A stretch of 64,000 bases of DNA. Origin: Pontibacter litorisediminis. GTDB taxonomy: Bacteria > Bacteroidota > Bacteroidia > Cytophagales > Hymenobacteraceae. Position numbers and translations under genes: made by a program. How positions within the stretch are numbered: position 1 is the first letter of the stretch; every line of letters begins with the position of its first letter. The notes beneath the pieces are model-generated. The model saw only the letters and a list, made by a program, of their open reading frames with translations. It ran no database searches and had not been told where the DNA came from. The stretch spans positions 558,001 through 622,000 of the forward strand of contig NZ_JARDUA010000002.1 of the NCBI RefSeq assembly GCF_029360645.1, read 5' to 3'. Shown here in pieces: positions 2,407 to 58,945 of the stretch.

Positions 2407-2414
2407 TAATTTTG
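2407..2414 (+). promoter_or_regulatory. Bacteroidota -7 box for the cysHDN transcript
   Basis: TAATTTTG matches the TAnnTTTG consensus of the primary sigma factor in Bacteroidota. A T-rich TTTA lies about 20 nt upstream in the -33 position. The box is 40 nt ahead of the riboswitch P1 helix, so the transcript would begin just before the aptamer. Confidence 0.6.
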
Positions 2415-2453
2415 CGGTATCAGTAACAAGACGGAAACGTCTCGATTTTTAAA

Positions 2454-2557
2454 ATTTATAGAGAAGAGGCGAGAGAATAGGCTCCCTGACCCTCTGGCAA
2501 CCTCCTGAACAGTAAGGTGCCAAATCCTATCCCGGCCAATGGCTGGGGAATATAAAT
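2454..2557 (+). ncRNA. SAM-I (S-box) riboswitch upstream of cysHDN
   Basis: The S-box core is visible: GGCAACC (2496-2502) and AAGGTGCCAAATCC (2514-2527). P1 is ATTTATA (2454-2460) with TATAAAT (2551-2557). P2 is AGAGG (2465-2469) with CCTCT (2491-2495). The P2 loop ATAGG (2477-2481) can pair with CCTAT (2526-2530), the known SAM-I pseudoknot. P4 is a GC-rich hairpin within about 2530-2548. The same helices occur at 13131-13231 and 58771-58878 with changed pseudoknot bases that still pair (ATAGG/CCTAT versus CAGG/CCTG). No terminator follows directly; the 3' strand of P1 lies 11 nt ahead of a small reading frame. By family knowledge, SAM binding stabilises P1 and lowers expression. Confidence 0.9.
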
Positions 2558-2568
2558 ACAACGATGCC

Positions 2569-2694
2569 ATGCAAATCTACCCACACACACCAGCACCATG
2601 TATCGCCAGCCGCTGTAACGCCACAGCCCTGGTAGCCATTACCAACACTGCCCGCAACCCAAAGGGCTGTTGTTGTTGCTGTTGGATGTGCTAG
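2569..2694 (+). CDS. Cysteine-rich leader peptide (41 aa) of cysHDN
   Basis: A 41-codon frame starts 11 nt after riboswitch P1. It has eight cysteines and ends GCCCCCWMC followed by TAG; the Cys run mixes TGT and TGC. It is not in frame with cysH and has no resemblance to a folded protein. Three similar frames occupy the matching place in the other two sulfur operons of this window (13002-13121, 12730-12861, 58614-58760), which makes chance unlikely. The likely role is regulatory: scarcity of Cys-tRNA would stall the ribosome on the run and change folding or Rho access downstream. The mechanism is inference; the frame and its position are seen directly. Confidence 0.75.
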   Translation: MQIYPHTPAPCIASRCNATALVAITNTARNPKGCCCCCWMC

Positions 2695-2774
2695 GTCAGC
2701 ACCTTTCCCTTTGCTTTAGGCCTGGTTACCCCCACAGCCACACTGCAAGCAACAATTTCAGGGCATTCTTTTTG

Positions 2775-2800
2775 CTGCTTTGCCGGTACCGGCAAGGCAG
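2775..2800 (+). promoter_or_regulatory. Strong hairpin between leader peptide and cysH
   Basis: CTGCTTTGCC (2775-2784) pairs with GGCAAGGCAG (2791-2800) with one G-U pair, loop GGTACC. It has no clear 3' T-tract. Between the Cys run and this hairpin, GCAACAA (2749-2755) is complementary to TTGTTGC inside the Cys codons, so alternative folds are possible. This may be the switching element that reads leader translation. Confidence 0.45.
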
Positions 2801-2864
2801 GATCATAATTAATGGGATTTTTGAAAGGTCCCGGGTTCATTCCGAATTTATACTAAAAACAAAT

Positions 2865-3584
2865 ATGGATCTATCACAGGAACTACTTTCCAGGCTGGAT
2901 TCGCTGCGCGCAATGCTGGCTGGTTTACCGGCCGCAGAAGGGCTGAGCCGGCTGGTGCAGGAGTTTGACGGCAGCATCGCCTTCTCCTCCAGCCTCGGCG
3001 TAGAGGACCAGTTGGTGACGCACCACATCTTTGAGCAGGATCTGCCGATACGCGTGTTCACGCTGGACACAGGGCGCCTTTTTAACGAGAGCTACACGCT
3101 GCTGCACAAGACCAACAACCACTACGGCAAAAAGATCGAGGTATACTTTCCGAAGCACGAGGCTGTGGAGCAGCTGGTGAACACGAAAGGGCCGATGAGC
3201 TTTTACAACTCGATCGACGACCGTAAGGAGTGCTGCTACATCCGCAAGGTAGAGCCCCTGAACCGCGCCCTGCAAGGGGTGCAGGTATGGGTAACCGGCA
3301 TCCGTGCCGACCAGTCCGGGGCACGCCAGGACCTGCAGCTGCTGGAATGGGACGAGGCCCATCAGCTCATCAAGTATAACCCACTGCTGGATTATACTTT
3401 GGAGCAGGTGCAAGCCGAGGTGAAGGCGCTGCACATCCCTTACAACCCGCTGCACGACAAAGGCTTTGTTAGCATTGGCTGCGCCCCCTGCACGCGTGCC
3501 ATTCAGCCGGGCGAGGATTTCCGCGCCGGCCGCTGGTGGTGGGAAGACAACTCCAAAAAGGAGTGCGGCCTGCACGCTAGATAA
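2865..3584 (+). CDS. cysH: Assimilatory adenylyl-sulfate (APS) reductase CysH
   Basis: Reduces APS to sulfite with thioredoxin or glutaredoxin as electron donor. The protein has 239 residues. The PP-loop-like segment FSSSLGVEDQ lies at about 45-54. Cys123-Cys124 and Cys206/Cys209 are the pairs that ligate a [4Fe-4S] cluster in APS-type enzymes and are absent from PAPS-only E. coli CysH. The catalytic Cys234 sits in KKECGLH at the C-terminus. The frame stays open upstream to 2670 without an ATG; ATG at 2865 gives the normal family N-terminus. It is first in the cysHDN operon behind the riboswitch and leader peptide. No APS kinase gene is present nearby, which agrees with APS as substrate. Confidence 0.95.
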   Translation: MDLSQELLSRLDSLRAMLAGLPAAEGLSRLVQEFDGSIAFSSSLGVEDQLVTHHIFEQDLPIRVFTLDTGRLFNESYTLLHKTNNHYGKKIEVYFPKHEAVEQLVNTKGPMSFYNSIDDRKECCYIRKVEPLNRALQGVQVWVTGIRADQSGARQDLQLLEWDEAHQLIKYNPLLDYTLEQVQAEVKALHIPYNPLHDKGFVSIGCAPCTRAIQPGEDFRAGRWWWEDNSKKECGLHAR

Positions 3585-58472: not shown

Positions 58473-58557
58473 GATTATGTTGATTTATAGTATGTAGAAA
58501 GAAAAAACATGAATTAACGAAGACAGGTGGTTATGCAGGTATAAGTAGGCTGTAGCA

Positions 58558-58574
58558 GCAGATCCGGGATCTGC
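58558..58574 (-). promoter_or_regulatory. Small hairpin between leader peptide and metY
   Basis: GCAGAT-CCGGG-ATCTGC, a near-perfect palindrome 40 bases after the leader stop. It is in the same relative place as the hairpins at 2775-2800 and 12678-12699, but weaker. Confidence 0.35.
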
Positions 58575-58613
58575 CACTAAGCCATGTATGAAAACAGGAG
58601 CGTTATACCTTGA

Positions 58614-58760
58614 TTAGCAGCAACAACAGCTGCACATGACACACATGGACGTGCGTATGACGAAAGCATTAGCAGGAGCTAAAATGCGGTTACGCGACAG
58701 TGACTTTTCTGTCGGTGAAACTAATAATACGTGCTGTGTTGGCTTGATTCCCTTTTTCAT
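58614..58760 (-). CDS. Cysteine-rich leader peptide (48 aa) of metY-metX-hom
   Basis: A 48-codon frame that starts 10 nt after riboswitch P1 and ends MCVMCSCCCC then TAA, with six cysteines in the last nine residues and two methionines in the same stretch. The first 38 residues hold no cysteine and begin MKKGIKPTQHVLLVS. It is the third example of the same layout in this window. Stalling when Cys-tRNA (and perhaps Met-tRNA) is scarce is the inferred trigger for expression of the downstream genes. Confidence 0.75.
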   Translation of the reverse strand: MKKGIKPTQHVLLVSPTEKSLSRNRILAPANAFVIRTSMCVMCSCCCC

Positions 58761-58770
58761 GACCGTATCA

Positions 58771-58878
58771 ATTTATATTCGTCCGGCACCCTGCCGAACT
58801 CAGGAATTAGCACCTTAACACCGATGGTTAGGTTGCTAGCGTTTCACAGAGCCTGTCTCTCCACGCTTCTTTATAAAT
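58771..58878 (-). ncRNA. SAM-I (S-box) riboswitch upstream of metY-metX-hom
   Basis: Minus strand: P1 ATTTATA (58878-58872) with TATAAAT (58777-58771); P2 GCGT with ACGC; core TAGCAACC and AAGGTGCTAATTCC; pseudoknot CAGG (58855-58852) with CCTG (58804-58801); P4 CGGCA-GGG-TGCCG. P2 differs in sequence from the other two copies (AGAGG/CCTCT there), so it is conserved in structure rather than copied recently. Confidence 0.9.
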
Positions 58879-58912
58879 CAATAACCGCAAAGGGCGTATT
58901 GACTTGATGTTG

Positions 58913-58945
58913 CAAGTATACGGCGCGACTTTTTAAAAAGCCAAA
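58913..58945 (-). promoter_or_regulatory. Promoter of metY-metX-hom
   Basis: Minus strand: TTTG (-33, 58945-58942), a 21-nt spacer, then TATACTTG (-7, 58920-58913), 35 nt before riboswitch P1. Here the window-wide word TATACTT forms the -7 element. Confidence 0.6.

What the first reader, a model, noticed from the sequence alone, without database searches (positions are those of the whole stretch)
2407..58945. Three sulfur operons share a composite leader: SAM-I riboswitch followed at fixed distance by a Cys-run leader peptide
At 2454-2694 (+), 13231-13002 (-) and 58878-58614 (-) the order is: promoter, SAM-I aptamer, 9-11 nt, then a 39-48 codon frame ending in a run of Cys codons. The frames share little sequence apart from that ending, so the layout is selected rather than copied. 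SAM-I and Cys leader-peptide attenuation are each known (the latter from actinobacteria), but I know of no report of the two in series in Bacteroidota. The P1 3' strand (TATAAAT) lies within the likely AT-rich initiation region of the leader frame, so SAM binding could block leader translation. With SAM low, the Cys run would then test Cys-tRNA. Full expression would need both low SAM and low cysteine: an AND gate for sulfate reduction, siroheme/sulfite reductase and homocysteine synthesis.
Basis: partly seen in the sequence, partly recalled or inferred. Interest (0 to 1): 0.93.

Follow-up and report, generated by a model that had tools for sequence, protein, structure and literature searches.

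The report
SAM riboswitch gates cysteine-sensing leader peptide
In many Bacteroidota, an RNA of the SAM-sensing riboswitch family SAM-I sits a few bases in front of a tiny gene that ends in a run of cysteine codons, and the pair is predicted to let sulfur-amino-acid genes be made only when both S-adenosylmethionine and cysteine run short.

Summary
A fourth copy lies elsewhere in the genome; the fifth SAM-I element, before metH, has a canonical P1 and no leader.

SAM-I aptamers here fall into two types by the inner P1 pair. With A-U there (TTTATA/TATAAA), a short ORF with a Cys-rich end follows: 44 of 47 in genome plus family, 33 of 37 in Mucilaginibacter, 12 of 30 in the wider order. With C-G there: 0 of 166, or 1 if TTG starts count. 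A GTDB scan blind to P1 gave 107 SAM-I loci, 106 titled as Bacteroidota, with the A-U pair in 104 of 108 aptamers.

Leader indels tend to keep frame, the peptide body drifts freely, the tail is held at Cys, and Met codons are enriched beside it.

Most likely: SAM-stabilised P1 blocks leader initiation; with SAM low, Cys-tRNA shortage stalls the ribosome at the leader end and relieves termination. The first step has good indirect support. The platform after the leader is unresolved: no intrinsic terminator, lineage-specific hairpins; Rho is my guess. The sir leader carries a second, conserved Cys ORF. New variant of known kinds.

The parts
2407..2414 (+). Bacteroidota -7 promoter element TAATTTTG (TAnnTTTG) before aptamer 1
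   Evidence: read; general enrichment
2453..2558 (+). SAM-I aptamer 1, AU-rich P1 (AATTTATA / TATAAATA)
   Evidence: RF00162, 70.7 bits
2569..2694 (+). leader ORF 1, 41 codons, MQIYPHTPAPCIASRCNATALVAITNTARNPKGCCCCCWMC
   Evidence: conservation of the layout
2695..2864 (+). interval between leader stop and cysH (170 nt)
2865..3584 (+). cysH (phosphoadenylyl-sulfate reductase), first gene; cysD and cysN follow
   Evidence: Pfam/NCBIfam
13260..13267 (-). promoter element TACATTTG before aptamer 2
   Evidence: read
13130..13232 (-). SAM-I aptamer 2, AU-rich P1 (AATTTATA / TATAAATT)
   Evidence: RF00162, 61.7 bits
13002..13121 (-). leader ORF 2, 39 codons, MNATKNIPAFGSIISQNRFASFSATAPAAMCCCCCCCSC
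   Evidence: orthologues
12730..12861 (-). second Cys-run leader ORF of the sir operon, 43 codons, ends MCCCCQQCLGMRAC
   Evidence: second Cys run in the 10 best-scoring loci (own copy included), 11 of 23 examined
12678..12699 (-). conserved hairpin HA (GCGC.GCC / GGC.GCGC); its 5' arm is complementary to the GMR codons of the second ORF
12636..12649 (-). conserved hairpin HB (GYCGC / GCGGC) just before the sir start
10522..12615 (-). sir-like nitrite/sulfite reductase hemoprotein, first gene after leader 2
   Evidence: Pfam NIR_SIR; NCBIfam matches all below their cut-offs
58913..58920 (-). promoter-like TATACTTG (one mismatch to TAnnTTTG) before aptamer 3
   Evidence: read
58770..58879 (-). 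SAM-I aptamer 3, AU-rich P1 (GATTTATA / TATAAATT)
   Evidence: RF00162, 77.8 bits
58614..58760 (-). leader ORF 3, 48 codons, ...SMCVMCSCCCC
   Evidence: 21 metY leaders of the genus
58473..58613 (-). interval (141 nt) with strong hairpin (GGCUUAGUGGCAGAUCCCGGAUCUGCUGCUACAGCC), no U tract after it
57150..58472 (-). metY (O-acetylhomoserine aminocarboxypropyltransferase); metX and homoserine dehydrogenase follow
   Evidence: TIGR01326 692 bits, MetX and homoserine dehydrogenase models

Best explanation
Each leader is a two-stage RNA gate: a SAM-I aptamer whose AU-rich P1 stem carries the initiation region of a short ORF ending in cysteine codons, so that bound SAM would likely shut off the ORF and, when SAM is low, a ribosome stalled for lack of charged Cys-tRNA would likely let transcription continue into the sulfur genes. 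Shown by sequence and comparison: the order promoter, aptamer, start codon 7-10 nt later in this genome, Cys end at or near the stop codon; conserved P1 pairing; a bias towards frame-keeping indels; a tail held at Cys; a tight link of the Cys leader to the A-U inner P1 pair. Inferred: SAM-stabilised P1 hides the A-rich element at -14 to -12 and blocks leader initiation. Inferred: scarce Cys-tRNA, and perhaps Met-tRNA since Met codons are enriched in the tail, stalls the ribosome there. Guess: without a stalled ribosome the C-rich, G-poor leader and interval let Rho stop transcription before the first gene, as in tna (recalled); no intrinsic terminator is seen. The output would be high expression only when SAM and Cys are both low.
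For: Aptamers. Leaders. By one rule (inner P1 pair; ORF start within 26 nt, at least 3 Cys in the last 10 residues): own genome plus family A-U 44/47, C-G 0/30; order 12/30 vs 0/20; Mucilaginibacter 33/37 vs 1/73. Of 166 C-G loci 63 have a short ATG/GTG ORF within 25 nt, none with a Cys end. GTDB scan blind to P1: of 119 stretches 117 were scanned, 107 hold SAM-I, with 108 aptamers: A-U inner pair 104, Cys-run ORF starting 1-26 nt behind 108, last residue Cys 80, at most two residues from the end 100. P1 pairs 3-8 paired in 147-152 of 152 leader loci, pairs 1, 2 and 8 in several pair types. Leader gaps multiples of three 42/82 vs 21/158 in the interval, Fisher 1e-9; body substitutions 74/58/72 by codon position, tail 9/7/20. 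A at -14/-13/-12 in 91/75/85% of 55 leaders, the element linked to better translation in Flavobacterium johnsoniae (PMC6847099, passages). Met 17.4% of non-Cys tail residues vs 1.0% of body, in all five lineage groups. For 123 of 157 leaders the nearest match within 2,500 bases is one of my reference sulfur/Met genes or the NhaC-like transporter. No terminator excess: 9/125 vs 6.3% of shuffles.
Against: No expression, ribosome or SAM-binding data. In the order-wide sample 18 of 30 loci with the A-U pair lack a Cys end, and 3 of 3 in class and phylum do. Four of the 108 GTDB aptamers with a Cys leader (L260, L261, L277, L293) have G in the inner 3' position, though AU outer pairs. L353, with a C-G pair, has a TTG frame ending MPAMCCCC, and 2 of 166 C-G loci have (TGY)4 within 400 nt. 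Half of the leader gaps (40 of 82) are not multiples of three. RNAalifold found no common structure after the leader in 21 metY loci; Cys-run pairing with the interval is weak (mean z -0.61 vs -0.35 for a control segment); helices named in two closer groups have little covariation. The C excess in the interval is small (C/(C+G) 0.60 vs 0.56 and 0.53), so the Rho step is weakly supported, and a ribosome at the leader end covers little of the interval.
Confidence: 0.66

Rival explanations
1. Same two inputs, but the last step is translational: leader stalling opens a structure that hides the start of the first gene; no transcription termination is involved.
For: No intrinsic terminator excess. 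Structure is strongest 20-70 nt after the leader stop (mean z -1.03); hairpin HB ends about 20 nt before the sir start.
Against: Windows starting 100 and 120 nt after the stop, near most first-gene starts, show no excess structure (mean z -0.03 and 0.05); the metY interval is 124 nt at the median.
Confidence: 0.2
2. The leader ORF only relays the SAM signal: its translation keeps Rho off or feeds ribosomes to the gene, and the Cys end tunes this but is no sensor.
For: Riboswitch-controlled uORFs are known in Mycobacterium tuberculosis (PMC11260477 abstract and discussion, PMC12810186 abstract). Loci with the A-U pair and no Cys end exist in the order.
Against: Only the tail shows a third-position excess of substitutions and it is Cys in every lineage group; the gap from leader stop to gene (median 124 nt for metY) is too long for stop-start coupling.
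Confidence: 0.08
3. The ORFs encode a small Cys-rich protein (metal- or thiol-binding) whose synthesis SAM-I controls.
For: They behave as coding frames.
Against: The body shows no codon-position bias in substitutions (74/58/72), length varies from 16 to 53 codons, and Cys sits at the end, with 1.2% in the body.
Confidence: 0.03
4. Chance or compositional coincidence.
For: TGY runs exist elsewhere in the genome (17 places); 10 of 117 scanned hits of the GTDB pattern are not SAM-I.
Against. Nine of the ten non-SAM-I hits fall outside Bacteroidota by title, whereas 106 of 107 SAM-I hits fall inside.
Confidence: 0.01

Closest known systems
SAM-I riboswitch (S box, RF00162), translational type with the initiation region in the P1 3' strand
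   Same: Aptamers score 61.7-77.8 bits; the P1 3' strand lies in an initiation region, an arrangement stated for SAM-I in PMC2258182 (passages).
   Different: The start codon governed is that of a leader ORF, not of the enzyme; P1 is AU-rich and fits SD-less initiation.
Polycysteine leader ORFs of mycobacteria (Canestrari 2020, seen only as a reference; Cys leaders predicted in PMC1262725, passages)
   Same: Short ORF with Cys codons near the stop, before sulfur genes, no obvious terminator; Rho was suggested there too.
   Different: Mycobacterial ones are leaderless (title) and no aptamer is mentioned; here the ORF starts behind a SAM-I aptamer and Met codons are enriched too.
Riboswitch-controlled uORFs of M. 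tuberculosis (B12-ppe2, Mbox-pe20)
   Same: A riboswitch controls a uORF before the operon (PMC11260477 abstract and discussion, PMC12810186 abstract).
   Different: In what I read their uORFs are not amino-acid sensors; the ppe2 uORF works by stop-start overlap, absent here.
SAM-I of Xanthomonas met operon that also senses uncharged tRNA-fMet (PMC7270179, abstract)
   Same: One leader integrates SAM and a tRNA state.
   Different: There the tRNA binds the RNA directly; here a translating ribosome would read tRNA-Cys.
uORFC-8-2 cysS attenuator (PMC8632094, passages)
   Same: Tandem Cys codons in a uORF.
   Different: Intrinsic terminator; no aptamer mentioned.
Leader-peptide attenuation in Flavobacterium psychrophilum (PMC9723704, passages and one section)
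   Same: Bacteroidota; 'strong clues' for leader peptides before amino-acid operons.
   Different: No link to a riboswitch or to Cys is stated in the section read.

Membership tests
SAM-I riboswitch (RF00162) | covariance-model score above the gathering cut-off over the full model | tested here: met
SAM-I riboswitch (RF00162) | binds SAM and changes expression | not testable with these tools
   no experiment
Ribosome-mediated (leader-peptide) attenuator | translated leader with control codons of the pathway's amino acid | tested here: met
   frame bias and Cys conservation; translation itself is inferred
Ribosome-mediated (leader-peptide) attenuator | mutually exclusive RNA structures after the control codons | tested here: inconclusive
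Ribosome-mediated (leader-peptide) attenuator | intrinsic terminator before the first gene | tested here: not met
   9 of 125 vs 6.3% in shuffles
Mycobacterial polycysteine attenuators | leaderless start of the Cys ORF | tested here: not met
   start codon lies behind an aptamer of about 105 nt
Mycobacterial polycysteine attenuators | Cys run at the end of the ORF | tested here: met
   last residue Cys in 80 of 108, within two of the end in 100 of 108
Riboswitch-uORF relay with stop-start overlap (Mtb ppe2) | uORF stop overlaps gene start | tested here: not met
   gaps of 123-386 nt in the own genome, median 124 for metY
T-box (tRNA-Cys) leader | T-box family match | tested here: not met
   only SAM-I matches in the window at gathering cut-offs
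tna-like Rho attenuation | Rho-dependent termination relieved by a ribosome at the leader end | not testable with these tools
   only a small C excess

The most novel reading that the evidence does not exclude
Bacteroidota evolved a modular two-input RNA gate in which a metabolite riboswitch decides whether a codon sensor is read at all: SAM-I licenses translation of a leader whose clustered Cys and Met codons then test both sulfur amino acids through their tRNAs. The same cassette sits before sulfate reduction, sulfite reduction, homocysteine synthesis and transport genes across the phylum, and in the sir operon it is followed by a second Cys sensor, a three-stage gate.
Probability: 0.5. Interest if true: 0.92.

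Novelty: new variant of a known kind. Interest (0 to 1): 0.83.

Why it matters
It would be a natural AND gate built only from RNA and a ribosome, joining the end product of the methionine branch (SAM) with cysteine supply in one leader of about 250 nt, and it would show how a riboswitch can work in a phylum without Shine-Dalgarno initiation. It predicts which SAM-I elements act through a leader (A-U inner P1 pair) and which do not. It also points to non-classical candidates for the sulfur regulon (TonB receptors, M14 peptidase, amino-acid permease, ATP-grasp enzyme).

Tried and rejected
Common structure after the leader: RNAalifold on 21 metY loci gave none; on 30 Mucilaginibacter loci it gave a short helix CACGU/ACGUG some 7-13 nt after the stop; of 12 pairs that I named there 7 show a change on both sides, but a 2-column slide also gives 7. 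Pairing of the Cys run with the interval: weak. Intrinsic terminators: no excess. In the sir leader, GMR codons of the second ORF against hairpin HA: 91.1% of cells paired, but 201 of 500 shuffles reach this; HA and HB: 92.6% paired (1 of 500 shuffles), no double changes. Small-protein, chance and pure-relay readings: see rivals. The two P1 types were seen first, so one search is not independent of them; searches are. My rules for the types differed slightly between (one search counted three GATAAA forms as AU, would not); one search recounts all sets by the inner pair alone, and I quote that. Searches used 126 loci in which some named and unnamed records are the same locus (L067 and L228); elsewhere only identical peptides were merged (157 to 152), leaving 126 clusters under 60% identity. 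The 36 loci are not.

Selection of loci: one search listed only its top-scoring matches (150 family genomes), of which I fetched a part; in Mucilaginibacter 110 of 140 matches were read. Two of the 119 (L313, L316; an Acetobacter and an Anaerolineae record) were not scanned.
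Full report
Setting. The window is G000:C2:558001-622000 of a 5.0 Mb genome. A same-genus genome (G109) carries the same sir leader peptide on a contig of the same length as the record titled Pontibacter ummariensis (L474 against L218), so the genus is probably Pontibacter; one search's genus is Mucilaginibacter by the same kind of match (L446 and L240). 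Behind leader 1: cysH, cysD, cysN. Behind leader 2: a sir-like hemoprotein, uroporphyrinogen-III methyltransferase, a siroheme dehydrogenase-TauE fusion and a Cys/Met-metabolism PLP enzyme. Behind leader 3: metY, metX, homoserine dehydrogenase.

Observation. Three SAM-I aptamers, each with an ORF starting 8-10 nt behind it and ending in Cys codons. The whole genome has five SAM-I elements; four have such a leader. The fifth lies 72 nt before metH, has a canonical P1 (CTTATC/GATAAG) and no leader ORF.

Two aptamer types. Reading 173 SAM-I loci from the genome, its family, order, class and phylum showed an AU-rich P1 (TTTATA/TATAAA) and a canonical one. Counted by the inner pair alone, with an ORF starting within 26 nt and at least 3 Cys among its last 10 residues: own genome and family, A-U 44 of 47, C-G 0 of 30; order, 12 of 30 and 0 of 20; class and phylum, 0 of 3 and 0 of 43. 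Near misses in the order end in CC only. The link is to the P1 type and not simply to the gene: 23 metY genes in class and phylum stand behind canonical aptamers without a Cys leader.

Independent sets. (a) 110 of the 140 SAM-I matches in 40 Mucilaginibacter genomes: A-U 33 of 37, C-G 0 of 73 with ATG or GTG starts, 1 of 73 if TTG is allowed: L353, whose frame from a TTG at +9 ends MPAMCCCC and has its first in-frame ATG much further on. (b) A GTDB scan for GCAAC, GGTGCYA and a Cys run 110-140 nt further, saying nothing of P1, gave 119 stretches at its limit. Of 117 scanned by cmscan, 107 hold SAM-I; 106 are titled as members of Bacteroidota (Cytophagales, Mucilaginibacter, Solitalea, Saprospiraceae, Chitinophagales, Flavobacteriales, Crocinitomicaceae, Psychroflexus and others; some genera placed from memory) and one, L206, only as 'bacterium'. 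Ten are not SAM-I, nine of them outside Bacteroidota. The 107 loci have 108 such aptamers (L286 carries two, back to back): A-U inner pair in 104, G in the inner 3' position with AU outer pairs in 4; Cys-run ORF starting 1-26 nt behind in 108, 7-10 nt in 75; last residue Cys in 80, at most two from the end in 100. (c) Of 166 canonical loci 63 have a short ATG/GTG ORF within 25 nt and none has a Cys end; 2 have (TGY)4 somewhere within 400 nt.

Translation and selection. In 46 pairs of related leaders, 42 of 82 gaps are multiples of three, against 21 of 158 in the following interval (41 pairs; Fisher 1e-9). Substitutions in the body fall evenly on codon positions (74, 58, 72), in the last ten codons mostly on the third (9, 7, 20). 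Both Cys codons are used (TGT 454, TGC 275). So frame and Cys identity tend to be kept and the peptide is otherwise free: what a codon sensor needs.

Met codons. Among 126 leader clusters, Met makes 17.4% of non-Cys residues in the last 12 and 1.0% in the body; 88 of 126 have one; in-frame ATG 9.0% against 0.2 and 0.6% in the other frames of the tail (the Cys run itself limits the other frames). The excess appears in Hymenobacteraceae, Mucilaginibacter, Flavobacteriales, the remaining GTDB loci and, more weakly (4 of 68 residues), other Cytophagales. I read this as possible sensing of both sulfur amino acids; an effect on stalling at Cys or an internal start are not excluded.

First switch. 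P1 pairs 3 to 8 are kept in 147-152 of 152 leader loci, pairs 1 and 2 in 138 and 137, and pairs 1, 2 and 8 occur as several standard pairs. The 3' strand places A at -14, -13 and -12 of the leader start in 91, 75 and 85% of 55 leaders. In F. johnsoniae A at -12 and -13 goes with better initiation and pairing around the start with worse (PMC6847099, passages). Hence SAM-stabilised P1 should block the leader. One class-level locus (L118) has an AU-type aptamer directly before the metX ATG at +11, the same switch without a leader.

After the leader. No U-tract terminators beyond chance (9 of 125 vs 6.3%); local structure is strongest 20-70 nt after the stop (mean z -1.03) and near zero 100-120 nt after it. 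Closer groups have their own hairpins with thin covariation support. Leader body and interval are C-rich and G-poor, C/(C+G) 0.64 and 0.60, against 0.56 upstream of genes behind canonical aptamers (17) and 0.53 upstream of window genes (26). With no terminator and an open gene start, Rho-dependent attenuation of the tna kind (recalled, not read here) is my choice, at about even odds within the main explanation.

Tandem Cys ORF. About 230-250 nt after the first leader's stop the sir leader has a second Cys run, in most relatives in an ORF ending CCCCQQ..GMRAC or similar; it is seen in the ten best-scoring loci (own included) and in 11 of 23 sir loci read. Over 154 intervals of all leaders, 6 have a second Cys-run ORF and none of 770 shuffles.

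Regulon. For 123 of 157 leaders the nearest reference match within 2,500 bases is metY (95), metX (9), cysH (7), sir (4), a Cys/Met PLP enzyme (4) or the NhaC-like transporter (4). Nine first genes were scanned with Pfam: the transporter itself and, among the unassigned, an ATP-grasp enzyme, an amino-acid permease, an M14 peptidase, three TonB-dependent receptors, a class-V aminotransferase and an OsmC-like protein.

Literature. Ten searches of the held library listed no paper on a SAM-I plus Cys-leader composite that I could recognise from title, abstract start or passages read. Precedents for each half and for riboswitch-controlled uORFs exist (Closest known systems). Canestrari 2020 was not held and is known here only by its reference entry.

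Verdict. The composite leader is real, widespread and under selection; its gating by SAM is well founded but untested; the AND logic is the simplest reading; the termination step is open.

Noticed in passing
window 12861-12730 (-): A second Cys-run ORF in the sir leader, conserved in close relatives, with a conserved GMRAC end complementary to a downstream hairpin arm: possibly a tandem attenuator.
   Followed up: partly
L004 (G000:C1:775333-775435, -): Fourth SAM-I plus Cys leader of this genome, before a Na+/H+ antiporter (NhaC)-family transporter, presumably for a sulfur compound.
   Followed up: partly
window 8050-9579 (-): One ORF matches siroheme synthase N-terminal domains and, in its second half, the sulfite exporter TauE: an apparent siroheme dehydrogenase-TauE fusion.
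   Followed up: no
L118 (class-level genome G222): AU-type SAM-I aptamer directly before the metX start codon (+11), without leader ORF: the translational switch without the second stage.
   Followed up: no
L353 (Mucilaginibacter genome G608): Canonical SAM-I aptamer followed by a frame ending MPAMCCCC: a Cys-run end behind the other P1 type, the one exception seen.
   Followed up: no
L286, 5540-5645 (-) and 5914-6012 (+): Two SAM-I aptamers back to back, 268 bases apart, each with its own Cys-run leader (Pontibacter ramchanderi).
   Followed up: no
L216, L222, L250, L252 (Flavobacteriia / Flavobacteriales): A hairpin-like stretch with the self-complementary GGGCCC recurs between leader stop and first gene; purpose unknown.
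   Followed up: no
L217, L200, L264, L246, L205, L048: SAM-I/Cys leaders precede TonB-dependent receptors, an M14 carboxypeptidase, an amino-acid permease and an ATP-grasp enzyme, candidate sulfur-acquisition genes.
   Followed up: partly
L088, L089 (G184, G169): Low-scoring SAM-I matches (48.7 and 48.6 bits) with a Cys-run ORF further downstream (+44 nt in L088) before metY: a possible divergent form.
   Followed up: no
leader tails in general: In-frame Met codons are enriched beside the Cys run in every lineage group examined.
   Followed up: yes
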